Assembly (NCBI GenBank): GCA_030272585.1 | Contig: BSYQ01000007.1 | Span: 4,654,001 to 4,718,000 of the forward strand | From: Bryopsis sp. KO-2023 | Taxonomy: Eukaryota > Chlorophyta > Ulvophyceae > Bryopsidales > Bryopsidaceae | DNA length: 64,000 nucleotides | Reading direction: 5' to 3' | Part shown: positions 609-58,257 of the stretch, piece after piece | Numbering within the stretch: the first letter of the stretch is position 1 | Layout of the letters: each line of letters begins with the position of its first letter | Notes under the pieces: generated by a model | Database searches by the model: none | What the model was told of the DNA's origin: nothing | The model's input: the letters and a program-made list of their open reading frames with translations, nothing else | Made by a program: the position numbers and the translations under genes

Positions 609-919
609 AAGGGGGGGAGTAGTTAATACGAAAGAACTCGTATTAGACCGTGAACCCCCAGGCCAGTGAGCTGGCTTAGTGCACTGGATAGTGTATCCAG
701 TCGGGGAGGTCACGGGTTCAAGCCCTGCTTTGGGCGAGAGCGTAGTTTGGGTGAGTGGGAGTGGGGAGGAGCTGACTAGGCTGAGGTGGAACGGTGTGGG
801 ATAGTGTCGGACGGAATTCCCTTGGAATTCCGGTGACTGGGTGGAACTCTGTTGTGAATCTAGAGCCTATTTAAGAGGCTACCCGATGTAATCAAATGTC
901 TTTTTTGTCTATTGTTTCT
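609..919 (+). mobile_element. Putative polypurine tract and LTR of a retrotransposon
   Basis: A purine run with seven G (AACTAAGGGGGGGAG, 606-620) is followed by a block holding an inverted repeat AATACGA/TCGTATT (627-646) and a TATA-like CTATTTAAGAGG (868-879). The block ends about where an antisense Gag-like frame starts to look coding (about 919). This is the layout of a polypurine tract plus 3' LTR with its promoter. The exact LTR ends and a target duplication were not fixed, and the second LTR is outside the window. Confidence 0.4.
657..735 (+). other. tRNA-like sequence with Pol III A and B boxes
   Basis: An A-box-like TGGCTTAGTGCACTGG (672-687) is followed by a 6-bp stem with a 7-base loop (83-88 pairs with 96-101 of the 600s block, i.e. 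683-688 with 696-701; loop TAGTGTA) and a B box GGGTTCAAGCCC (714-725). A weak acceptor stem can be drawn between 657-663 and 728-734. Loop position 33 would be A rather than U, so this is unlikely to be a working tRNA. It may be a tRNA-derived SINE head or a tRNA-like part of the LTR. Confidence 0.4.
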
Positions 920-1648
920 CGCCCGTATCAGATATTCGTCACAGACAATCTTGAACCTGCTCGTAAACGCCAACAGGGACTCCCCTTTTTCTTTCTTCAA
1001 CGCCAAGATCCTTTGTTCCGGACTGAGAATACTCTCCGTTGGAAGGAGATTGTTTAGATTCGCCTTGATAGAATCCCAGCACGCAGTCTCTATGCGTTCC
1101 TCGTCAGTAAGTCGAATCCTTCGCTCTGGATTGTCTGGGTCCTGAATAAACCACTCTGTAGCCTTCAGCGCATTAGTGATCATTTTGTAGATTGCGCGTC
1201 CTTCATGTGTGGTCGGCGCAACGTGCTTAAGAATGACACGTGCTCTCTCCGTGGTCTCTTCCTCTGTGACCTCGGCATACGGGACGAGCCAGTCTGCCGT
1301 CTCCCTTGTCCATTTCGTCACTCTCTGTATCTTTTCAACGTCAGCCATGTCGTGCATGCGGTTCTTCCTAGGACGCGATATGTCCGGAAAAAAAAGGTGT
1401 TCGTCAGTTTCAAACCAAGGCGTGTTACGCCACTTAGCTTGCTTGTCGAGGTCAGTCACACTCGACGTGTCTGAGGTAGCACGTCCTTGTGCCAAGTCGT
1501 GAGAGCGCGTATCTGCGTCCTCGCTGGTTCGCTGTCCTTTTGCGGTTGCAAACGAACTATCACTGAAGGATAGTTCGAGGTCGAGCTCTTCGAGTTCAAC
1601 GCCTAAGCGAGCCAGCGTGCGAACTTTAAACGACTGAATAGACCGAGT
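860..1648 (-). pseudogene. Gag-like retrotransposon fragment
   Basis: An open minus-strand frame of 263 codons has no ATG at its upstream end, where it is b closed by a stop at 1649-1651. Its centre resembles retrotransposon Gag: helical, charged, with aromatic positions (TKWTRETADWLVPYAEVT; ESLLAFTSRFKIVCDEYLIR) and no zinc knuckle in view. Coding character fades below about 919, where the plus-strand LTR-like block begins, so the frame is probably cut by a nested insertion. Assignment rests on general Gag character rather than on a specific family match. Confidence 0.45.
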
Positions 1649-5826: not shown

Positions 5827-6932
5827 ATTCAAAATCGGACAATGTCTGATTTTCAAGATATACTTGAGAAATAGGCGGCCATGTTGTGTCAAGGAGAGAG
5901 TCAATGCTCATGCCGGTATTATTGGTTTCGTATCTTAGTAATATGTCACCGTGAAGTTTGCGGGGACGTTGTGAAATAGAATAGATTTCCGGATTTCGGA
6001 GAAGGAAAGGGTTTCGGAGGGGGAAATATGAACGAGTTGATCAAGTTGGCTATTTTAAATTTAGGAACAGATGAAACACAAGTCTCCAGATGCTTCCAAG
6101 CATGTCGATTTCTGGGGCTACCTCCTGGATCGGTTTACAGGAGTTGTGCACGTGACAGGCGAAGTGGAAATTCCTTGTTCACGAGGTCACCAGTGCGCTG
6201 TGAGCCAGCTGTAGTTTTTGGCGTATTGCCTTGTTGAGTGGGCTGACTCTCAACCGATTTGACGAGAAAGATTCGAAACTTTTCCGCAAGTACAAGCTCG
6301 ACTCCATTCGGCAAGAAAAAAATCCCTGCATCACCATATATCGTTGGCCAACGTATCGCATCCTGGCGGTCGGGTCCACGCCACACATTGTGATAGGCAA
6401 AATACGTGCCAGACCCTAAGCGCAACCAGGAAGGCTCCAAGAAGGGATGTGTGTTGCGGCGTAATTGGTCGTGGCAATTGGAAAGCGATCCTCACGTGCG
6501 ATAACCTTCTCTCGCGAAGGTTGGCTGGAAAGATGAACCTTCCGCAATCCACGCCACTGGCTTTCCGCTTTAGAGAAAGCTGCGCACTGAAAGAAGAATT
6601 TGGATCACAACAGCCCACACGGAGCGATCTGCATGTGAGAGGCGCTCGGCAAGCGAGCAACGTTAGGGGGCGGTTGATCGCTGCGGGAGAGCGACGCTTC
6701 GGCGCTTGATTCGCTGGCTCCGATCGATTCCGGCGCTTGGGCTACACTCGACCTTTCAAGAGAGCCCGAAGCGGCTCCCTCCTCCTCCCTTCTTCTTCCG
6801 CCTCGATTGTGTTGATTCCAGTACTGAACCCAAATCCCTCGTTCTACGATTTCGCTGTTTTCCGTACTTACGAATATTTCTGGTCGGATTCCAGAAACTC
6901 TCCACCCCCCCAGTCGGTCAAGGGACGGTTGG
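5827..6932. promoter_or_regulatory. Upstream region and probable 5' UTR of the DP gene
   Basis: No convincing gene. GC content and CpG density rise from about 6420 towards the DP start, as expected for a promoter and long 5' UTR. Overlapping frames on both strands here are short and look like shadows. Confidence 0.35.
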
Positions 6933-9167
6933 ATGTCAAATGCACTCGTCGTCCCCGCCAGCTTGCAGCAGGAAGACGTCTTTGTTGTAGCCGAACGGAT
7001 GGCTAGGAAGTACACGAATACCCTCCCAGGTCCGGTCTGGAAAGGGGGAGCTCGGCTGGACTTCGAACAGGCGCACGGAAGGTGCGCTAGCGAAATGACC
7101 GGCTTCGGAGATTTGGACGCTGACAGCGTTTTCGGGTGCGGTGCTTCCGACCTGGGCTGCGGTTTCGAGGAGAGTCTGGTGGGGAGGGAAGCATCCTTCG
7201 TGCGCGACGTGGTTGACTCATGTTCGGCATCTCGACGCATCATCGACGAGGATAACGGGATGTTTCGTCCTAGACGGCCGTTCGAGACAGAAAGGGTGGT
7301 GCAGGGTCATCCCAGCAAAACGTTGTCCAGCTTGCCAGCTTGGAGAATGGATAGTAGTATCAATGGTGAGAGCAGGTTGGGGCGAGATGATATGCTGGGG
7401 CGTTGCCCTGCGGGGGATGTTTTCGCCTACCACCTGACGACTGATATCGACGAGTGTATTCGGGAGCACACACGAATGCCGGATGCTGACTCGAAGGGAA
7501 TGGGCTTCTTCGCCGAGGATCACAAACAACACGACAGAAACGAACGACCTTCCGTGAGTAGGACGGGGCAGGCGTGCGATGCGAACGCTTCGGCTTTCAA
7601 CACGGAAGCTGGCTCGCTGGACGGAGGGTTTCTGAGGGAAAGCCGTGAAGAGAGCCCGAAGGATAAGCTCTTGTCGCCTTCGTTCGAGCTTCCGACGCTG
7701 GGGAGGGCCACGTCCAAAGAGCCGTTTCAAGAGCCCAGCTTTTTGGAGCTGGCGGACAGCCCGTGGAGGAGTGTCACGTCGATGGATGACGTCGACTTTG
7801 GGGATCTGGGATCGAATTTCATAGAGCAAGACTCGTTGCTGCCGACGTCTAATGCATGCTTTGACGACCGTTGCGTTGAGACGTGCAATCATCACATCCT
7901 GGATGCTGGTCCCTCCATTCTAGGGATGAGCACTCGAGGCTGGGGGCTGGCAAAATCACAAGCCTGTTCCAACCCATTCAATGGCCTGGATGATGGAAAT
8001 TTGGAGGGGAGTGTTTCAGTAAAGACAGAACCGGATTCGCCAAGGGATGCTGACTATGTCCCCGATGAATTCAACATGGGTTCGAGCAACGAAGACTCGG
8101 AGGATGAGGGCGATATTAAGACAAGGCCCACAAAATCACGCCGCTTACACCAAGGCCAACAGAGAAGATGCATCACCAGAAATCGGTCCTGCCCTGAAGC
8201 TCCAAGACAAGGGAAGACTATGGGGAGTAGAGGTCGATCCACTCGAGCTCGTACATCCCCTCAAGTGTACCATCGTGTTGGAGTGGCAAGGGACAGCAAG
8301 CAGTCAGGGGTGCTGAAGAAATTCAGCAGTTTGGTGATCGACGAAATCAAGCTGAGGCAGGTCACGACATGTTCCGAGCTGGTGGAAAAACTAATCAAGG
8401 AGGAGAACGAGCAGGCCAATGCAGATTATGTCAAACGCCGAGTGTACGATATCGTGAATGTTTTGGAGGCGATTGGCATGATCCACAAGGACGAACAAAA
8501 GCAAGTCTCCTGGAGGGGTCCCAGGAACATGGTCGCCCAACATCCAGAAATAGAAGAGCTGCAGCAGCAAATCAGGGACCTGAGGGTCAGCATCAAACAA
8601 AAGACGATGTACGACATGCAACTCAAGGATAATTATGCTGCGATGATGGGACTGGTTGAGAAAAATCGCGATCGGCCGATCTTGGAGGAGGACAAGAGGG
8701 ATGATATTGTGCCTCTGCCATTTGTTCTGGTTAGGATTCCGAAGACCGGGGTGGTTCATGTACACATTGCAGACGATGGAGGGGACATCGATTTTGGGGA
8801 GAACCCGTTAATGATGCATGGGGACATGGAGGTGCTCCGAGAATTGAAACTGAACGATATGGATGATGGGAAAGCCGGCGACAGGAATTCTTGCGATCTG
8901 ATCGAGCCTATGACGCCATGCCCTTCTTCTGGACGGATTGAGAGATCTTGTGGAGCCATGGACACAACCCCTTGTTCAACGAGCGTGGAGAGTGAGGAGG
9001 AAACCATGCACAGCAGAAGAGTTGCATCGTCCCTGTCATTGGAGAGGGTGCTGTCACCGGATTATGCCAACGTGTCTAATTGCGCGTTCAAGAGGGGCAA
9101 TCGGAATTCGTGCCTTCCTGAAAATCAATTCGCACCCAGCAGCACTTGCTTTAGCATGGGGGCTTGA
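6933..9167 (+). CDS. DP-type transcription factor (E2F dimerisation partner)
   Basis: Intronless gene of 744 codons. The first 440 residues are acidic, low-complexity and Ser-rich, with a stretch KTEPDSPRDADYVPDE near 367-382. A basic linker leads to a winged-helix DNA-binding domain at about 453-530 (GVLKKFSSLVIDEIK ... KRRVYDIVNVLEAIGMI ... VSWRG). A coiled dimerisation helix follows (about 540-580), then a DP-type marked box (PLPFVLVRIPKTGVVHVHI ... MMHGDMEVLRELKL, about 595-650). The last part is what separates DP from E2F in the family. DP proteins pair with E2F in the nucleus to control S-phase genes. The recognition helix reads partly like E2F (NVLEAIG rather than the DP form NVLMAM). 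The long N-terminal extension is unusual for plant DP. The first ATG of the frame is chosen as start. Confidence 0.8.
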   Translation: MSNALVVPASLQQEDVFVVAERMARKYTNTLPGPVWKGGARLDFEQAHGRCASEMTGFGDLDADSVFGCGASDLGCGFEESLVGREASFVRDVVDSCSASRRIIDEDNGMFRPRRPFETERVVQGHPSKTLSSLPAWRMDSSINGESRLGRDDMLGRCPAGDVFAYHLTTDIDECIREHTRMPDADSKGMGFFAEDHKQHDRNERPSVSRTGQACDANASAFNTEAGSLDGGFLRESREESPKDKLLSPSFELPTLGRATSKEPFQEPSFLELADSPWRSVTSMDDVDFGDLGSNFIEQDSLLPTSNACFDDRCVETCNHHILDAGPSILGMSTRGWGLAKSQACSNPFNGLDDGNLEGSVSVKTEPDSPRDADYVPDEFNMGSSNEDSEDEGDIKTRPTKSRRLHQGQQRRCITRNRSCPEAPRQGKTMGSRGRSTRARTSPQVYHRVGVARDSKQSGVLKKFSSLVIDEIKLRQVTTCSELVEKLIKEENEQANADYVKRRVYDIVNVLEAIGMIHKDEQKQVSWRGPRNMVAQHPEIEELQQQIRDLRVSIKQKTMYDMQLKDNYAAMMGLVEKNRDRPILEEDKRDDIVPLPFVLVRIPKTGVVHVHIADDGGDIDFGENPLMMHGDMEVLRELKLNDMDDGKAGDRNSCDLIEPMTPCPSSGRIERSCGAMDTTPCSTSVESEEETMHSRRVASSLSLERVLSPDYANVSNCAFKRGNRNSCLPENQFAPSSTCFSMGA

Positions 9168-10024: not shown

Positions 10025-13000
10025 TCAAAACCCTGGAAGTTCACTGAATTCCAAAATCCCTGTGGGAAGATCTGCAATTTTCTGTAGCAGCGCCAGTCTG
10101 CTGGTCTTGATGGCCTCATCATCGCTCATCACAAACACTTTGTCGAAATATTGGTCAATGGGTCCAGCCAAAGATTCACAAACCTTCAAGAATTCCGGAA
10201 TACTCATCGAAGGGTTGACCTGGACAGTTTCACACAAGAAAGACTCAATCACTGGCCCAAATTTATCCAATTCATCAGTCAAGAATGGCAAGCCTCTTCG
10301 AAAGGAATACAACTTCTTGTGTGGGCAACTCCAGACATTTCGTGTAGCAGCCACGAAATTCTCTAAGTTTGGTATGGAGATAACCCCCCCTTTTCGAAAA
10401 TGAGCCCATCTTTCTTCTTCCGCATCGAAGCAGTTTGCCCTCGATACAGAAAAAAAAAAGTTTCATCATTCAAACCTGCACTCGGAAAGAATGGGATTTC
10501 CACACACCTTTTCGGCCGCATTCTTGTAAGCAGCCAATAGGGCCCTCTCTTCCTCGTGCTCGAAAAGAGTCTCATCGACCTTGGCATTTTGGGGGATTTC
10601 TTTTCCCCTCACGATTCGAATGGGTCGAGCCATGGGCGTCATCACACGAGCCAACAGCGACTCCTCCCCATTCTCCAATTGCCTCGACAAATCCTCGGCA
10701 CTCGCAGATGCCAAGTAAGGATCATTCCCCCGCTCCAACAGAACGCTCCGAACTACCGAAAGCCAATGCACACGTGTTTGGATTCGTCGAGTTGCCAAAA
10801 TATATGACTACGTACTGACTTTACAATGTTAAAAAAAAAAAAGCTTATGGAAATGAGCAAAATTTGGGTACTGACCTGCTTGGATGGGTAGACCTCGGTC
10901 GACCAGAAGCTGCTCCAATCTCCTCTGGATGAAAGTCAAGACCTCCTCCTTGGCTTTCGTAGTAACCTTGATCTTCTGGGAGTATGATGCCAAGTCCACC
11001 GCCTCCACCACATCCAGACTGACCTGGTTGACGATGAGGGTTTGCAAGAAACCATAAGCCGTCCTCCTCAATGCATAGGGATCCGCTGTCGCTGTGGGTG
11101 CCCTTCCAGCCGCCACCAACCCCACCAAACTATCAATTTTGTCAGCCAAAGACACCACAATGCCAGCATGTGTTGCGGGCAAGATGTCTCCCGAAAACCG
11201 AGGCAGGACGGATTCGAAAATGGCTTGAGCCACATCAGGGGATTCACCCCAGAACAGCGCGTAATGGCGGCCCATGGTGCCAGCCAGCGAGGTCATTTCA
11301 GTCACCATGGATGTTGCCAGGTCTGCTCTGCACAGCCTGGCAGCCCGTTTCGCCAGCGATTCCATGTGTTTCAGCCCTGTCTCGTACCCTAATGGCCTGA
11401 CCAGCTTCTCTATCCGAACGGTCTTCTCCAACAAGCTCCCGAGGGATTTCTCGAACGTCGTGCCATCCAATTTCGGTCGAAACGTCTCGAGGTGTTCCTT
11501 CAAATCCTCGTTGTAAAAGAATTCGGCATCTTGGAAACGGGCCCTCAGCACCGCTTCGTTTCCGGACCTCACAGTATCCACATCAATCTGCCCATTGGCA
11601 ACGGTGATAAACACTGGCATTAACTCGTCCGGGTCGTCCTGACTGACCACAGGGAAATATCTCTGATGCTTTTGCATTACGGACACCAGCACATCCGTCG
11701 GCAGGTTCAAGAACTCTTCCGAGAAGGTGCCAGAAATCACGGTGGGGGCTTCCACCAAATTGGCAACCTCATTCAATAAATCCCCTCCAAACGATTCCGG
11801 AACCACCCCGTTGTGCTCTTTCGCAATGTTTTGCACTTCGTCCCAGATTTTGGCTTTTCTTGCTTCCATATTGACGATAATGGCATTCGAATCCATCGTC
11901 GACACATACTCCTCCGCTGAGGCCAATCGCACTTCACCAGGGGAGCCCCCTCTCAGCAGACAGCTTGAGGAGCCCGCTGTCATACCTGCAAACTCCAAGG
12001 GAATCTCGGTCACCCCATGCATGGCGACCAGCCAGCGTAAGGGCCTGCTCCAAGTAACGTTCGAATTCCATCGCATGCTCTTTCTGAAGGAAATCGTGGA
12101 AAGCAACTTTGGCAATGATCCAGCCAGGACCTCAGCTGCACTCTTTCCTTCATCCCGTACCATTGCATAGACATACTCCACCCCTTTTGCGTCGGCTTCC
12201 TTGGTAACCGAATCCGCCGAAATGTTGTTTTTCTTGCAAAACCCAAGCAGAGCTTTCGAAGGCTCCCCAGAGTCATCGAACGCGATTTTGGCTGGAGGTC
12301 CCCTCACTTTCTCCTCCAACAGCTTTTGTTTTCCAGCCAAACCCTCAATGACCACAGCCACCCTCCTGGGAGTGCCGTGTACAGCAATCGACCCATGGTC
12401 CAGCCTCATTTCTCTGAGCATTTCTGGGAACTTGGTTTTTAATTGGCTGATTGCGGAAACCACCTCCACAGGGGGAAGCTCCTCGCTGCCGATTTCCAAC
12501 ACAAAGGTTCTAGGATCTAGGTTGCTTGCCATGGGAACTGCGGCTATCTTCTTTTCACTGGAGGTTGATTCGGTGGCATTGCCGAGGGGGAAGCCCAGCT
12601 CTTCTCGTCTAGCCACCCAGCATACAGCAATTTCCCTGATGCAAACTGAACAGAAGTGTCAGTGACATGCAGCGAGAATCAGGGCAGCTGTCCGACAACA
12701 GAGCTCAGAAAACTCCACCACTTGCAAACATTCAATCTAAGCTCAAATTATTGCCCTTTCCACTGTTCATGCAGTCTTCCCCGTGAGTTTTTGTCAATTT
12801 GTCAAACCACCACCCCAGGCTCATCTTCTTTCTACTCTCTTTCAGTTAGCTGGAATCGTAAAAATCCACCAACCTGGCCAGCGTCCTCAATTTAGCAAAG
12901 CAAGTGTTTCGTTCGGTAACCCCCACGGCTCCACGAGCATCCAACAAGTTGAACGAATGCGAACATTTCAACAAATTCTCATAAGCTGGAATAGGCAGCC

Positions 13001-49294: not shown

Positions 49295-52200
49295 ATGAAG
49301 CGAAGTTTGCCTGACCAGCCCGTCAAGTTACACCTGTTTGGCCCGGATGGAGTCGAACATCCGCTTGGGGAAAGGAGGCTTTTCGGTCGTGGATGCGGAT
49401 TCTCGGGCGATGAACACGTGAGCAGAAGGCAGTTCGCTGTTTCGGCGGTGGACGAGGTAGAGGGTGTGGGTCGTCTGGAGAATTTGGGAATGAACCCCAT
49501 GGCCATCGAGGTGTCCGAGGGAAACGAATGGAGAACGATCGACATTCTAGAATCCGGGCAAGAAACGATATTGAATGCATCCATGAGGTTCTATGTTCTG
49601 CACAAGATGCAAGAAACCCTTTTCCAGGTGATTCCGAGCACAGATTTTTCCCAGTCTTTCTTCTAAAATTTGTTGTGAGGTTCAAATATCAATTATATAT
49701 GTTTAATTAAAATATAATGTAAAATGTATATTATATTGTATGTTTTATTTTAATATTCAACAATCTGTAGCTCAGATATTGACATTCAAAATCGTGCTCC
49801 AGATTGGATCATATGGGGGCATGTTCCAACCCATTGACATTCAACTCAATGATTGGTAGGTCAAAGAAGCTGAGCATGATATTGGGAACACAAGTGACGT
49901 CCCCAGTCACGCTGCAAGCAAGCAGAAAACCACCAAGGAGGAAATTGACCTGACCTCATCCAACGATGCGAATCCAACGAATTACCCACCCCAGCCCTCC
50001 AACAACGAAACCCCGGGCAATCGTACGGAGCAAACCTCCCCAAGTGTAGGGTTTTCCCTGCTGTGGGTTCGAGGTCTTGCCGAAAGGGTGAATAGCGGGG
50101 CATTTGGAGTGAAATTGCGGCACCTGATGTCTGGCGGCTCCATGAACGTGGCATTCGTGTCGAATTTCATGATCGATTTCCCCTCGCTGCTGTCGGCATG
50201 CCCTGAACTCAGCAGTGTAAAGAAAATGATTGTGGTGCATGGAGAGAAGGGGGTTTCAGCTGTGAACATCCGCCGAGCTGCTGAGACAGTGGGTTATCAG
50301 GATCTAGTGGTGCATGGTCCGCCATTGCCTGTTTCGTATGGAACACATCACACCAAGGCTTTCATTATTGGGTACGATTTTGCTCGTCCCCCCCAAAAAA
50401 ATAAGAATAAAGAAAAAGTAAGAGCAAACAGCGAAAAAAATGGAATGAAAAATGAAAAAACTGACAACTGACACAGAAACAGGGAGGTAAAAATATGCAG
50501 ATGGCAGTTAGAAAATCGGAAGATATCAAGACGATGTGACAACCTGACTCTATCGTCTGTCATAGCCACGGGATGCATGGATGAATGAAGTTTAATGCCA
50601 CATGGAATCAAACACCAACCCAAAACGCTTTCGCTTCTATGATTCAAACTGATCAACATTAGACAAACTTCACAGTTTCTTTATTTTGGGATCTGCCCTC
50701 TCGCCAATATTAGCTTTCTGGTGCATAGGTTTGAAACTGGGGTGAGGGTGGTGGTTCACACAGCTAACCTTATCTATGCAGACTGCAACAGTAAAACACA
50801 AGGAGTGTGGTGGCAAGATTTTCCAAAAAAGAAGCCTGATGGCAGAGAGAACAGCGAATTCGGCCTGGATTTGTTGGGATATCTCACAGCGCTGAAATTG
50901 CCACGGCAAGCGAATGAAATCATGACGAATCTCGTCAACGCTCATGATTTTAGCTCAGCCAGAGTCAAGCTGGTTGCTTCTGTTCCTGGTGAGAGGCGGC
51001 CTGGAGGGTTGATTTCTGTCAAAAAGTGTGAGAATGGTTGGACTGTTGAATGGGGGGGGGGGGGGGTGCTTCGACGGAATCCAACTTTCGTGGTAATTTC
51101 GTAGCAGGGGGAGTATTGAGTTGACGGTGCCGGGCAGTAAAACCTAGTGACATTAGCTGATAAACATCTTGATTTTTGATGGGATTCCTGTGTTTGTCTT
51201 TTGTTGTTTTTGAAAGAGAAGAAGGAACCATTAAGAAAATTCGTGCGTCCAATTGTTGTGACAGGATACCATAAAGGTGAGGATCTGGAAAGATACGGCC
51301 ACATGCGGCTACGCCAAATCCTACGGTCTGAGCGATTCGATTCAAAATTCCACAGGGCACCGGTGATATGCCAATTCTCATCCATGGGATCGCTGGATGC
51401 AAAATGGGTCACTCAAGAATTTCACTCCAGCGTGGGATGTGGGAAATCTGTTGCTGGCGGGGAGCTCCAAATGCCCCCAAAAGACGCCGCCGGAATGCAA
51501 ATCGTATGGCCGAGGGTTTCAGAAGTTCGTGAGTCCATCGAAGGATGGGCGGCTGGTTATAGCATCCCAGGATATGTTAAAAACGTAGCCAAGCCCTTTC
51601 TTAGGCCTTTCTTTCACAGGTAGGGTAGATGGGGATGCATTTCGCATTTTGATGGTTGGTGCTGATGAAAATTGGGCATCGATTGAAGCTGCCAGACGTT
51701 TTTCCTAGTGCATGTCAAGCCTCCTTCTTATTTGGTGGGGGGGAGTGGGGGGGAGGTGGAAAAGCAACTAGTTGTGTGGTTCCATATGTTGCATACAGTC
51801 AGTATTCTGACTGTACAATCTCAGGTATTGACCTCAAATATGTCGACCTTTCGTGGGTGAATGTTTAGGTATGGTGGATCCCCCGCTGGACGGCAACGAG
51901 CGATGCCTCACATCAAGACGTTCGTCCGGTACTCTGGAAACGAATTGGCTTGGGTTCTGCTCACATCCCATAATCTCAGTAAAGCAGCATGGGGAACTCT
52001 ACAAAAGAACAACACTCAACTCATGATTCGGTCGTACGAAATGGGTGTCCTCTTCGTACCGTCAGCCGAGCAGGCTTATCGAACATCGCCCCATCGGGAC
52101 TTCTCATGCACCCCTTCCATCAGCAATTCAGGCTACCTGGGTTCACAATCCATGCCCATGCAAGCAAAAGAAGAGAAGGATCAATTGGATGCATGCGGTG

Positions 52201-52469
52201 GGCCGTCGAATCGAGTGGACAGTGGTAGTGGGTCTGAGTCCATCCAAATGGCTCAATATGTGGCGATTCGCAGTGATAGGAAGAATCCTGGTTCGGATGT
52301 GGGACATGCTGCTGTGCTTGGGTTTCCTCTTCCCTATAGTTTGCCTCCTGAGCTTTACGATGAACATGATAGGCCATGGATGGTGGATCAACCAGTTGAA
52401 GGTGTTGATAGTCTTGGTAGGGCATGGGGTGTGCCAGTTTCCTTCTATGGACACAAACAAGATGGGTAG
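49295..52469 (+). CDS. TDP1: Tyrosyl-DNA phosphodiesterase 1 with N-terminal FHA domain
   Basis: Exons 49295-49627, about 49875-50371, 50729-50988, 51217-51619 and 51869-52469. Residues 1-110 form an FHA domain (LFGRGCGFSGDEHVSRRQFA, GRLENLGMNPMAIEV), which binds phosphothreonine partners. The catalytic part has both HKD half-sites: GTHHTKAFIIG and AMPHIKTFVRYSG ... LTSHNLSKAAWG. Other family blocks are HTANLIYADC, TQGVWWQDFP, ICQFSSMGSLDAKWV, QLMIRSYEMGVLFVPS, FPLPYSLPPELYDEHDRPWM. The enzyme removes stalled topoisomerase I and other 3' adducts in the nucleus. Plant TDP1 has the same FHA start. The acceptor of exon 2 is weak and its first codons are uncertain. Confidence 0.92.
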
Positions 52470-53607: not shown

Positions 53608-56600
53608 CTAATTCTTGTTCCTCATCATTTCCTCCAGTGTGGTCCCAATGAATCTAAAAAATTGCACCATCTTGACAGCCATGCTGTTCTGTACCCATTT
53701 TTCCAGTTCAGCCAGGAATCGCTGCGTATGGCCCTCATCATGCTTACTCAGCAGCGAAACAGTGGTCCCCAACATGCAAGGACTGTAAATATCCGTCAAG
53801 AAATCCCTCAGCCTGATTTTGAACTCCGGCACCGAAACCTTCTTGCTGTCGTTTTCGATTTCCTCCTTGATCTGGGTCAGAGCATCAGCCACAGAAAAGA
53901 TGTGGTCGATCGATTTCTTAATGGCTGCTCTCTCCCCGTCGTTCATTTTATCTATGGCTCCGGTGTGTTTCGCCTGGGCAGCAACTCCTTTCATGGAATC
54001 CCTGATCGAGGCCAGCACATCTTTTCCCTCCACCCCTTTCAATGGATAGGCTGCCGTGATCCCCCTTACCCACGTCCATTCTATCTCAAGAACCTCCCCA
54101 GCTTCTTCAAGCGTCAAGTTCCACAATTGATCAGAGGGATCCCCGAATGACTCTGAACCTCGGCCAGCATTTTCCCCCATGTGACTGTCATTATTCTGAG
54201 TCTCAGCTGGGAAACCTTCACTTTTCGGCTCACCCAGAGGTTCAGAAATGATGTCAGCTTTCTTCCATCGATCCTCAGAAACATTTTCTGGGTAAGGCTG
54301 GTAGTTTCCGCTGGTGGGTTGTGGTTGCGGATTGTCAGCCCTCAAGCCTTGACCAATGCTCCGCCCTTGAATGGGGCTCCCCCGTTCATTCCAAGATTCA
54401 TCAAAACCTCTGCCTCGGCACCCCCCATCTCTCTCCTCACTGTGATTTTGAGCCTCGTAGTTTTCCGCATGAGCGGCCTTCAAATCGTTCTCATTGAGTT
54501 TGGTCCCTCCATCATGGGACCCACCCTGCGATTGGACATTGTTTGTCCATCCGCGGGGTCTAGAATCTGGGGGCCCGCTTTGCCTGTGGTCAGACTCAAC
54601 AGTTCCTTGAGGTTTCGTGTTCTCAACCCAGCCTCTGATCACAGGAGGGGCAGGGCTCTTGAAGGGACCCCAACCCCCTCCACCCAGCCGGGTGGCGCCA
54701 ATATCATTCAGCGATTCCGCATGATTGGTTCGCATCCCTTGTTGCTGGCCTTCTGGAGTTTGACCACGCTGTGCGCCTGACCAGCCAGCACTCTTTTGTT
54801 CCGAAGCTTGACCTGGCTGTGTGTGACTGGACCAGCCAATCTTTTTCTGTGCCGGAGTTTGATCAGGCTGTGTGTCAGACCAGCTACTAATCTTCGGCTC
54901 CGGGCCTCGACTGGGCTGCGCACTGGACCAGCCAGTATTCTTCGTTGCTGGAGCTCGATCAGGCTGTGCTTCATTAGACCATCCAGTATTTCTCTCAGCA
55001 TTGTTCTCTTGATTTCCGGAGCTCCAGCAATTGGATGTTTGCGTCGAAGCAGGACCCCATTCACATTGCTGACCTTTGGGAGCGCTTTCAGATTGGCTCT
55101 TACCAGTTTCCTCTTCTTGTGGATTTCGGGGTTGGTTTCCAGACCACCCCACACCTTCATTGCGGGTACCACTCCCTCCCCAGCCACCGCTTTGCTGGGA
55201 ATATCCCTCATGCCCAGTCTCCCCAAGCAGCTCTCGGATCCTGTCCGCACATTGAGTTTGCAAATCATACGCGACTCTGCGAGCTTCCATCATATTTTCA
55301 ACAATCTCTTCTTTCGTGACATCAGGCCCGATTGCTTGGGGCCCGGCTCCCATTTTAGGGGAGCCCTGCTGCAATTGTTCGTCGGATGGGTAGTGCAGGA
55401 CACTCAGCATATGCTTTGCACACGATAAGAACCTCAGGGTATCCTCCACCGTGGCCCCCTCCCTCCTACTCTTTTTCAGAAGGAATTCCAGTTCGTCACG
55501 CTGGAAAAAAACCAGTCTCGAAAACAGAGGGCTCAGTATGCTGTTCCAGTGTTTGGCCATTACTCTCAATAGATCTGCACAGGTCCAGGGGGGCTTGATC
55601 AACACAATGTCTGACCACATATCACCATATTCCAGTTGCAGCAGATGCTTCAGGAATGGGGATATTCCGGTCACCAGGACTTCTGACGCTTTGGTGAGCA
55701 ACTCCTGCCACTCCTGAGAGGTCCCAAGGAAGCTTCCCCCAGCCGAGTTGAGCTTTTCCAAAATTTCACTGGCCACCCTTCCGTATGAATAGCCTGGTGG
55801 TCTGTCAGAGCGATTCCTTGTGGGATTTCCATCTGTTCCTGATTCCCAATGGCCATGTTGACCCTCCCGCCTGCCAAATTCGTTGAAGGAACCCCATCCA
55901 CGACCCCTAATCCCCCTGCCAGTTCCTCGACCCCTCCCAGAATCGTCACGGTTGCTTCTATCATCCCATGATCTATTTCCAGAGTCACCCCACCCACCCC
56001 CACCATATCCACCATGCCCCGAATTTTGCCGGTCATCACCCCGTCCCATACCCCCACCCCGACCTCTGTGTCCTGATCCTACGCTGAACCCTTGCCCTCG
56101 AACTCCTCCATAGATACCACCCCACCCGTCTCCAGAGTCTTGTTCTGGATCCTGCCTCCACCCATCTTGACACTGTGAATCATTCGAGTTCTGCTGTTTT
56201 GCTTGGTTCGGTGGACCCCCAAATGCCCAATCATAGCTCCGGTTCTGACTGGGAGCCCCCGCTGAACCGCCTTCAGGTGCAGAGTTCCTCTGGTTTGAGT
56301 TGGACATCCATTGACTCCCATCCGGACCATCTTGTTTCTGTGGAACATCCACTGGCTCTTTTTCATCTGGTGTCTGCTTTGCCTGGGACATGCCCCACCC
56401 AATGGATGAATTTTCTAGTTTCACTGGCTCAGGGCCCCATCCAGTGGGCTTTTTTTGAACTGTCGGGTTTGAACGAGCAGGTGGATTTTCGTCTGCAACG
56501 GACCTCAAAGGTGGGGTTGCTGATGAGACTGGCTCAGGGCCCCAACCGGTGGACTTTTGTTGAGCCGTCGGGTTTGAACGAGTAGGTGGAATTTCTTCTG

Positions 56601-57638
56601 CAATGGACCTCAAAGGAGGGGCCGCTGATTGGACAGGATTGATGACCGGTCGCGTAGGTCGGGTCTCCTCCAATCTAGGTTGAGAACCCCAACCAGAAGG
56701 TGACTTCTGTACCGTGGGTCCTGGACCCCATCTAGACGGCGCGGTTTTCACAGCCTTGGGTTCCGGACCCCATCCACCAGATGAGCTTTGCTGCACACTG
56801 GTTGCAGAAGGTTGCATATCGCTCCCCACAGGCTGAGCCCATCCAATAGAGGAAGTTCTTTGCACCACGGGCTGAGGACCCCATACAGTGGATTCCTTGT
56901 TCGGAGCATTCAAATCTGAGCTCCTCCCAATGGAGGGAGGCGGTGTGGACATCTGGGACGGTGTTGACACAATGTTCTGTGGATATCGAGGTGAATTTGG
57001 ACCATACCCTGAGGACTCGCTCCTTCCTCGACTTGGAGCTTGCTCAGGCTGTTGACTGATGACACCTTTAGGTGCAGCCTCCTCCTGAGACTGGGAGATT
57101 GGTATACGGTTAGGCTGCGAATTACCCCATGTCATCCTCGTGCTTTGCTGTTCCTTTGGAGGTGGTCCCCATCCAGATGGCTTCATCGATGCAACAGTAG
57201 ATGCCTTTTTGTTTGCTGCGAGTCCACCTGAAGACGCAGGAGTGCTGGTATACCCTATCTGTGAACACCCAGTCAGATTGGGGGGAGGTGCCAACTCATT
57301 ATTGGCGGAATTTGACGAGGGTGTGTTTTCTGATTGCTCCGAGCTCCCTCTGCGACCAAATCCGACCCCACCCCGCTGGCCTGTCGGGGTTGCCTGGCTG
57401 GTCCATCCTGTAGAAATCTGCCATTCTTCTATTTCGCCACGTTCGATCGGTTTCTGAGGGAGTTTGGGTATGAGAGGGGTGCCCACAGCCAAATCAAGAT
57501 TCAGCAGCGACTGCACAGATGCCCAGGAATCCATTTTGGTGTTGCGCATCATCTTAGCTGGGTCGAGATGTCCAGCTTTGGTCCATCCTCGAATTCTATT
57601 TTTGGAAAAGGGCCCTTGGTATTGGAACTGGGGTTTTG

Positions 57639-57682
<44 letters not shown>

Positions 57683-58257
57683 AGATTCGACTGGTGTCCC
57701 AGCGCTCAACACGTTTTTTCCAATTGGATGGGCATGTAGATTGCTGTCAGAAATCAGCTGCGCTTACTGAATCGTCAAGGTACTCCCACTCTTCGCTTTC
57801 ATCCGTGCTGCCTAGAAAAACACACAGGTGCCCTTGTTTCACTTTTCGCTCTTGTTGGAATAAATCCACACCCTTGACCGATGCATGCGACCAAAGTTGT
57901 GCAGCCAGGAATAAAACGTTATTCTCGCCGTTAGATGACGAAAAAAAAAAACGTCGGTTACCTTCGTATCCTAGCTCCGTGCAGAAGTTGTTGAAAGCCA
58001 ACTGAAGCTGGTGCGCTTTTCCCCTGACGTCCACAAAATACCCAGCCACTTCGCCAATTTTCGACGCGCTTTTCACCTGAAAAGCATGAAACCTTGAGAA
58101 GGTCAAGACTGCGATATCCCAGTTCACTTCGTTTGAACAGCTTTTCTCGGAACGCTTAAGTTTGCTGCCGCGCGACTACCTCGACGTCTGCCCCCTGGTC
58201 ATGGGTGTAGTCGAATGGCGGCGAGCCGACGGCACGGGATTGAAAAAGTTTCAGTGC
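53608..58257 (-). CDS. GYF-domain protein with GW/WG repeats and RGG box, 5' end unresolved
   Basis: Minus exons 58257-58180, 58076-57962, 57811-57768 and one long exon 57627-53608, phase-consistent, at least 1400 residues. A GYF domain spans the exon junction: EEWEYLDDS then FQYQGPFSKNRIRGWTKAGH. About 25 GW/WG motifs follow in two blocks (PSGWGPPP, STGWGPEP, PTGWGPEP; then NTGWSNEA, NTGWSSAQ, IGWSSHT, AGWSGAQ). Between them are an RGG/Gly-rich stretch (RGRGTGRGIRGRGWGS) and a helical block (ADLLRVMAKHWNSILSPLFS, KSRREGATVEDTLRFLSCAK). A second helical block ends the protein. GW/WG arrays are Argonaute hooks, and GYF domains bind Pro-rich partners, so a small-RNA silencing cofactor is likely. 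It is not clearly NERD or GW182. The first exon was not found. Confidence 0.75.
57641..57679. repeat. (AC)n microsatellite in a GYF-GW gene intron
   Basis: About 19 AC dinucleotides, 14 bases upstream of the acceptor of the long exon on the minus strand, where it acts as the TG-rich tract of the 3' splice site. Confidence 0.95.

What the first reader, a model, noticed from the sequence alone, without database searches (positions are those of the whole stretch)
53608..58257. GYF-domain protein with about 25 GW/WG motifs: candidate Argonaute-hook factor
A single protein joins an N-terminal GYF domain, two GW/WG arrays, an RGG stretch and two helical blocks. GW/WG arrays bind Argonaute in animals (GW182) and plants (NERD, SPT5L, SUO). 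This domain set does not match a known member that I can name, so it may be a lineage-specific silencing component.
Basis: partly seen in the sequence, partly recalled or inferred. Interest (0 to 1): 0.7.

Follow-up and report, generated by a model that had tools for sequence, protein, structure and literature searches.

The report
PIN-less SWT1 relative with GW arrays
In a green seaweed, a relative of an mRNA quality-control enzyme lacks the RNA-cutting part and instead carries long tryptophan-glycine arrays of the kind that can hold Argonaute, so it may connect mRNA surveillance to RNA silencing.

Summary
Minus strand, 58257-53608: a GYF domain, two GW/WG arrays (26 of 44 Trp next to Gly) and helical blocks. 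The GYF is split by an intron and passes Pfam's cut-off only when spliced (E 7.7e-8). It keeps 5 of 6 GIGYF2 ligand contacts.

Helical block 1 is a Swt1-type HEPN domain: hhalign against 30 bacterial HEPN_Swt1 domains gives E 2.5e-9, and 0 of 200 column shuffles reach the score. The catalytic motif is lost. A paralogue on contig C6 has PIN + RGG + the same HEPN (SWT1 architecture) and the same N-terminal exon phases. So the window gene is a SWT1 paralogue without PIN that carries GW arrays; C6 has none. A third paralogue (C5) carries four PPG-Phi motifs, the GYF-ligand type.

The genome is Bryopsis-like. It holds Argonaute (27 Piwi matches, 12 places), RDR and Dicer-like genes. Of 8 readable Argonaute loci, 5 keep three key Trp-pocket residues and 3 keep none. 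An Argonaute-hook role is plausible but unproven. Best reading: a non-catalytic RNA-binding scaffold derived from SWT1. New variant of a known kind.

The parts
58180..58257 (-). earliest exon recognised (frame ALKLFQSR...; no ATG; start codon lies further upstream, not found)
   Evidence: splice-site listing and translation; inference
57962..58076 (-). exon of 115 nt: short N-terminal module shared with the C6 SWT1 gene (its exon is 118 nt, same phase)
   Evidence: ungapped alignment with C6, 0 of 1000 shuffles reach the score
57768..57811 (-). exon of 44 nt: first strand of the GYF domain (..EEWEYLDDS)
   Evidence: spliced GYF passes Pfam cut-off
57628..57767 (-). intron carrying a (CA)n/(GT)n microsatellite that splits the GYF domain
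   Evidence: sequence, splice sites
57448..57627 (-). start of the large last exon: second part of the GYF domain (FQYQGPFSKNRIRGWTKAGHL) and linker
   Evidence: PF02213 E 7.7e-8 spliced; 5 of 6 GIGYF2 ligand residues kept
55801..57447 (-). disordered stretch 1: GW/WG array (15 of 20 Trp next to Gly) ending in an RG-rich part
55366..55782 (-). helical block 1: Swt1-type HEPN domain, catalytic R-N-x3-H motif lost
   Evidence: PF18731 E 0.0038 (under cut-off); hhalign of the three algal copies against 30 bacterial members E 2.5e-9, prob 96
54160..55212 (-). disordered stretch 2: second GW/WG array (10 of 14 Trp next to Gly), 8 of 13 Trp spacings 11-17 residues, then polar linker; approximate limits
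53611..54159 (-). C-terminal block 2, helical by eye, weakly like the C-terminus of the C6 SWT1
   Evidence: BLASTP E 0.033; 4 of 1000 shuffles reach the score; no Pfam match
53608..53610 (-). stop codon

Best explanation
The gene is a paralogue of SWT1, the nuclear mRNA quality-control endoribonuclease. It lacks the catalytic PIN domain and carries two GW/WG arrays. I think it works as a non-catalytic scaffold on RNA-protein particles. The Swt1-type HEPN domain (without its own active site) and the RG-rich stretch hold RNA. The SMY2-class GYF domain holds a partner with PPG-Phi motifs, for which the C5 paralogue is a candidate. The GW/WG arrays hold one or more Argonautes in the Trp pockets of PIWI. 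It would thus bring small-RNA complexes and an SWT1-like surveillance assembly together on the same transcript. Shown by computation: the domain order, absence of a PIN match at this locus, paralogy with C6, GYF and HEPN identity, non-random GW content, and presence of Argonautes with three kept pocket residues. Inferred: RNA binding, Argonaute binding, the C5 partnership and the cellular place. I hold the identity (PIN-less SWT1 paralogue) at about 0.85 and Argonaute binding at about 0.45.
For: Paralogy: block 1 finds the C6 gene at E 2.7e-16, 34% identity. The C6 frame has PIN_4 at E 7.5e-21, then RGG, the HEPN block and a C-terminal block; PIN followed by HEPN is the architecture described for Swt1 (PMC3710099, passages). 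N-module + GYF align ungapped over 63 residues with 0 of 1000 shuffles reaching the score. The two introns there have the same phases in both genes (exons 115/44 and 118/47 nt); the second lies one codon apart in that alignment. HEPN: hhalign of the three algal copies against 30 bacterial PF18731 domains gives E 2.5e-9, with 0 of 200 column shuffles reaching it. PIN absent: the genome-wide PIN_4 search lists C6 and two places on C8, none at this locus, and one continuous exon runs from GYF to stop. GW arrays: 15 of 20 and 10 of 14 Trp next to Gly, while C6 has 0 of 7. Argonaute: 12 places; 5 of 8 readable loci keep P590, K660 and R688. GYF: 5 of 6 ligand residues. C5 tail: 4 PPG-Phi motifs against 0.53 expected, 18 of 10,000 shuffles reach it.
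Against: HEPN in the window protein alone stays under Pfam's cut-off (17.9 against 27.5 bits). C6 HEPN alone and the first half of C5 HEPN get no Pfam match. A plain HMM of the 30 bacterial domains scores the window block at 13.8 bits and C6 at 5.8, and the C5 pieces below zero. The AlphaFold model of block 1 is poor (mean pLDDT 55) and Foldseek finds nothing at E <= 0.001. By sequence the C6 PIN is closest in the PDB to SMG6/EST1A (E 5.5e-5), with no Swt1 chain listed, so C6 is called SWT1 on its PIN + HEPN architecture, not on its PIN. The C6 GYF gets no Pfam match and keeps 2 of 6 ligand residues. The second half of C5 HEPN does not align significantly to the window. Block 2 does not look like HEPN. 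No Argonaute binding is shown. One published analysis holds that three fully conserved Trp sites are a feature of metazoan Argonautes only (PMC12477606, section 35). Three of 8 Argonaute loci here keep none of the three residues.
Confidence: 0.5

Rival explanations
1. A PIN-less SWT1 paralogue that acts only in nuclear mRNA surveillance, as a regulatory or competing partner of the C6 nuclease. The GW/RG-rich stretches are general sticky, RNA-binding or condensate-forming sequence with no Argonaute contact.
For: SWT1 relation; RGG- and Gly-rich stretches around the HEPN block of C6 without GW; Swt1 function in mRNA quality control at nuclear pores (PMC4198930, passages).
Against: 25 of the 34 Trp in the two stretches sit next to Gly, and 15 of 32 Trp spacings are 11-17 residues. 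The genome has Argonautes with three kept pocket residues.
Confidence: 0.35
2. A GIGYF-like translational repressor: the GYF domain recruits repressor partners, and the HEPN and GW stretches are accessory.
For: SMY2-class GYF with 5 of 6 GIGYF2 contact residues; GIGYF2 works beside GW182/TNRC6 in animal miRNA silencing (PMC12249416, passages).
Against: Another GYF gene of this genome looks more like GIGYF/EXA1: C7:3841182 has 6 of 6 contact residues and a YDTLLQKL motif that I take, by recall, as 4E-binding. I saw no such motif by eye in the recovered window protein. The SWT1 relation explains more of the protein.
Confidence: 0.1
3. A green-algal counterpart of NERD, the plant GYF + GW protein of RNA-dependent DNA methylation.
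For: GYF together with GW/WG; PMC9699677 (passages) gives GYF, zinc finger, SWIB and Plus-3 as ancestral to the land-plant ZMP/NERD group and cites NERD as a GW protein connected to AGO2.
Against: No PHD, SWIB, Plus-3 or CCCH match in the recovered protein; the passages read name no HEPN in that group.
Confidence: 0.05

Closest known systems
SWT1 (yeast Swt1, mammalian C1orf26): PIN + HEPN endoribonuclease of nuclear mRNA quality control
   Same: Swt1-type HEPN with lost catalytic motif; the C6 paralogue has PIN + HEPN, RGG/Gly-rich linkers and a C-terminal block, and shares the N-terminal exon phases with the window gene
   Different: no PIN nuclease; two GW/WG arrays instead; intact SMY2-class GYF (the passages of PMC3710099, note WW in some Swt1; the word GYF is not in that paper)
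NERD (Arabidopsis)
   Same: GYF-type ancestry together with GW/WG; Argonaute link (PMC9699677, passages)
   Different: that group carries PHD, SWIB and Plus-3, none found here; HEPN not named for it in the passages read
GW182/TNRC6
   Same: GW/WG arrays in disordered sequence as possible Argonaute hooks
   Different: no RRM or UBA match; here GYF is in the same chain as GW, while in animals GIGYF2 is a separate protein that binds TNRC6A (PMC12249416, passages)
SPT6L / NRPE1 / SPT5L / SDE3 type Argonaute-hook proteins of plants
   Same: GW/WG platform added to an RNA-handling protein (listing; partly recalled)
   Different: the core here is SWT1-derived, not a polymerase, elongation factor or helicase

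Membership tests
SWT1 | PIN_4 endonuclease domain N-terminal to HEPN | tested here: not met
   window protein: only GYF models match; genome-wide PIN_4 search lists no match at this locus. Met by the C6 paralogue (E 7.5e-21).
SWT1 | Swt1-type HEPN domain, catalytic motif lost | tested here: met
   hhalign E 2.5e-9, prob 96, 99 columns, 0 of 200 shuffles; single sequences under Pfam cut-off or unmatched
SWT1 | dyad of HEPN domains | tested here: inconclusive
   C-terminal block does not match HEPN by hhalign (prob under 1); weak likeness to the C6 C-terminus; AlphaFold job for it did not finish
GYF domain, SMY2/GIGYF2 class | fold and PPG-Phi contact residues | tested here: met
   spliced domain over Pfam cut-off; Y, D, Q, F, W kept, last Tyr is His
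Argonaute-hook (GW/WG) proteins | GW/WG repeats in disordered sequence beyond composition | tested here: met
   15 of 20 and 10 of 14 Trp next to Gly, shuffles 0 and 11 of 20,000; disorder judged from composition, no predictor run
Argonaute-hook (GW/WG) proteins | Argonaute with key Trp-pocket residues in the same organism | tested here: met
   of 12 Piwi places, 8 readable at P590, K660 and R688 (positions recalled from human AGO2 work): 5 keep all three, 3 keep none; 4 not fully readable, of which 3 show K660 kept
Argonaute-hook (GW/WG) proteins | Trp-dependent Argonaute binding | not testable with these tools
   needs pull-down
NERD | PHD, SWIB, Plus-3 beside GYF | tested here: not met
   no such Pfam match in the recovered protein; 5' exon(s) missing
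GW182/TNRC6 | RRM and UBA domains (recalled) | tested here: not met
   no match
HEPN ribonuclease | R-x4-6-H catalytic motif | tested here: not met
   where 29 of 30 bacterial domains have RNxWAH (my count), the window has LLKKSRRE, C6 IGTKTERS and C5 SLTKTLSY (alignments)

The most novel reading that the evidence does not exclude
A duplicated mRNA-surveillance nuclease was rebuilt into an Argonaute scaffold: PIN was dropped, GW arrays were added, and the C5 PPG-Phi paralogue is held through GYF. One three-paralogue family would then link nuclear mRNA quality control to small-RNA silencing in a coenocytic green alga. It would be a GW182-like scaffold evolved independently from SWT1.
Probability: 0.25. 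Interest if true: 0.8.

Novelty: new variant of a known kind. Interest (0 to 1): 0.55.

Why it matters
Green algae have Argonautes, and Trp pockets are reported for two of the three in Chlamydomonas (PMC6668577, passages), but in the listings and passages I saw no GW scaffold named for them. If this protein binds Argonaute, it shows that a GW scaffold can arise from an RNA-surveillance nuclease by loss of the nuclease, and it ties two RNA-control systems together. It also gives a concrete, testable set of three paralogues (C6 nuclease, GW scaffold, PPG-Phi partner) in an alga known, by recall, for regenerating from extruded cytoplasm.

Tried and rejected
Pfam on the whole frame gave only sub-threshold GYF; splicing solved it. 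PDB sequence searches of blocks 1 and 2 gave only chance-level matches (best E 0.72 and 0.054). The C6 PIN searched against the PDB found SMG6/EST1A first (E 5.5e-5) and no Swt1 chain. AlphaFold of block 1 without an alignment was poor and Foldseek of it gave no match at E <= 0.001, so neither is used as evidence. The AlphaFold job for block 2 was not finished. PF18731 itself found nothing in this genome, nor in the 14 control genomes. A scan of bacterial/archaeal genomes with the HEPN alignment found no relative among 115 pattern matches. The own-genome search with part of GW array 1 found itself and one weak match (E 0.081); low-complexity filtering may hide others. The own-genome search with block 2 found only itself. 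No match in plasmids. Rfam and tRNA scans of the window were empty. NERD, GW182 and HEPN-RNase membership were considered and rejected (see membership rows). Eight paper searches: in the listings and the passages read I saw no paper on a GYF-SWT1 or a GW-bearing SWT1.
Full report
OBSERVATION. The window lies on contig C7 (4654001-4718000) of a 91.1 Mb genome of 28 contigs. On the minus strand one frame is open from 57705 to the stop at 53608 (1365 aa). Within it 26 of 44 Trp have a Gly neighbour (22 GW, 15 WG). Disordered stretch 1 has 15 of 20 Trp next to Gly and stretch 2 has 10 of 14; composition-preserving shuffles give means of 5.5 and 3.9, and reach the observed value in 0 and 11 of 20,000. 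Fifteen of 32 Trp spacings are 11-17 residues (7 of 19 in stretch 1, 8 of 13 in stretch 2; my count). Part of array 1 is a tandem duplication, so the number of independent motifs is lower than the count. 'Disordered' is judged from composition; no predictor was run.

GENE MODEL. The GYF domain is cut by an intron that holds a (CA)n microsatellite. The frame alone scores 18.2 bits, under Pfam's 25.7. With exons 58076-57962, 57811-57768 and 57627- joined it scores 32.4 bits, E 7.7e-8. An earlier exon, 58257-58180, fits the frame but has no ATG. The 5' end is not solved.

GYF DETAILS. The review PMC12249416 (passages) lists Y538, F549, W557 and Y562 as GIGYF2 residues that contact the ligand, and D540 and Q546 as positions next to its conserved Gly. 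In register the window has Y, D, Q, F, W and H, 5 of 6. The C6 paralogue has 2 of 6. Two other GYF genes of the genome (C7:3841182, C3:1338260) have 6 of 6.

HELICAL BLOCK 1 IS A SWT1-TYPE HEPN DOMAIN. Pfam gives HEPN_Swt1 as best match but under its cut-off (E 0.0099; E 0.0038, 17.9 of 27.5 bits). To test this I collected bacterial PF18731 domains: 43 of 201 genomes of the phylum of G001, a genome from a Chloroflexi record, had a match. I used the 30 best of the 48 places listed, the ones handed out as loci. A plain HMM of them scores the window block at 13.8 bits, C6 at 5.8 and the C5 pieces below zero. Profile against profile is clearer: the three algal copies (C5 with an X run where its middle exon was not found) against the 30 gave probability 96.2, E 2.5e-9, score 57.3 over 99 columns. 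The best of 200 column-shuffled algal alignments scored 21.4. Single sequences: window 92.8, C6 75.3 probability. The RNxWAH motif that 29 of 30 bacterial domains show (my count) is missing in the algal copies. PMC3710099 (passages) describes eukaryotic Swt1 as a dyad of HEPN domains fused to PIN, with WW in some, inactive, and proposes that the HEPN binds and senses unspliced pre-mRNA.

PARALOGUES. Block 1 finds two more places in the genome. C6:3166377 matches at E 2.7e-16 and lies in a 950-aa frame with PIN_4 at E 7.5e-21, a Gln/Pro-rich stretch, RGG, HEPN, a Gly/Tyr-rich stretch and a C-terminal block. PIN + HEPN is the SWT1 architecture; by PIN sequence alone its nearest solved relative is SMG6/EST1A (E 5.5e-5), and PMC2581889 (passages) names the PIN domains of Swt1, C1orf26 and SMG6 together as the nearest to that of a plant protein. 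Upstream, C6 has the same small exons as the window gene (118 and 47 nt against 115 and 44 nt, same phases). N-module plus GYF align without a gap over 63 residues (0 of 1000 shuffles); in that alignment the second intron lies one codon apart. The C6 GYF itself gets no Pfam match. C5:1746001 (E 0.017) has an RGG stretch, the first half of HEPN (0 of 1000 shuffles) and a long tail with four PPG-Phi motifs (mean 0.53 in shuffles, 18 of 10,000 reach 4). The second half of its HEPN region does not align significantly to the window (415 of 1000 shuffles). The C-terminal blocks of window and C6 are only weakly alike (BLASTP E 0.033; 4 of 1000 shuffles), and neither looks like HEPN. GW content: window 26 of 44 Trp, C6 0 of 7, C5 last exon 4 of 7. 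PIN_4 matches lie on C6 and at two places on C8, none at this locus. So the window gene is a SWT1 paralogue without PIN, and long GW arrays are seen in this copy, not in C6.

ORGANISM. The LHC protein at C5:4953856 matches PDB chain 6igz_7 over 165 residues with, by my count on the printed alignment, 160 identical. 6igz is, by recall, photosystem I of Bryopsis corticulans. I treat 'Bryopsis-like' as likely, not proven.

SILENCING MACHINERY. Piwi: 27 matches at 12 places. RdRP: 20 matches on three contigs, each spanning much of the model. RNase III: two matches in a 1478-aa frame on C5, called Dicer-like on that pair alone, and two matches on C16. Of 12 Argonaute places, 8 could be read at three Trp-pocket positions of human AGO2 (P590, K660, R688; positions recalled). 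L008, L009, L010, L013 and L014 keep all three; L007, L011 and L012 keep none; of the other four, three show K660 kept and the rest unreadable. L010 and L014 look like close copies of L009 and L008, and some copies may be decaying, so the five are not five independent genes. PMC6668577 (passages) reports pockets in Chlamydomonas AGO2 and AGO3 but not AGO1. PMC12477606 (section 35) argues that three fully conserved Trp sites are a feature of metazoan Argonautes only. The second statement counts against my reading; the first counts for it.

MECHANISM. Shown: a chain with a GYF of the PPG-Phi-binding class, an inactive Swt1-type HEPN, an RG-rich stretch and GW/WG arrays, and no recognised nuclease. 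Inferred: RNA is held by HEPN/RG, Argonaute by GW, and a PPG-Phi partner (perhaps C5) by GYF. Swt1 acts in mRNA quality control at the nuclear pore in yeast (PMC4198930, passages). The combined reading is a scaffold that joins small-RNA complexes to SWT1-type RNA surveillance. The main rival is the same protein without any Argonaute contact.

NOVELTY. In eight paper searches (open-licence library only, listings and passages seen) I met no GYF-SWT1 and no GW-bearing SWT1. I rate it a new variant of a known kind.

Noticed in passing
L019 minus strand (C5:1741500-1751400): Third SWT1-HEPN paralogue whose tail has four PPG-Phi motifs and repeated RGPPPNM units: a possible ligand of the window gene's GYF domain.
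   Followed up: partly
G000, 12 places: 27 Piwi matches at 12 places, against three Argonautes in Chlamydomonas (PMC6668577, passages); the 8 readable loci fall into 5 that keep three Trp-pocket residues and 3 that lack them.
   Followed up: partly
window 10829-12658, minus: Bacterial-type glycyl-tRNA synthetase beta chain (PF02092, E 3.7e-176); in a pattern-limited scan of bacterial genomes the best relatives were Chloroflexota MAGs at up to 45% identity.
   Followed up: partly
window 6828-9167, plus: Frame with both E2F/DP winged helix and Transcription factor DP matches and a long N-terminal part without a match.
   Followed up: no
window 51861-52469, plus: Exon with the C-terminal part of a tyrosyl-DNA phosphodiesterase (PF06087), convergent with the GW gene.
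   Followed up: no
G000: 107 chlorophyll a/b-binding family matches, including pairs with the same score such as C9:482708 and C9:551333, which may be recent duplications.
   Followed up: no
window 860-1648, minus: Frame that reads like a retrotransposon gag-type protein to the eye; no Pfam match at E <= 0.01.
   Followed up: no
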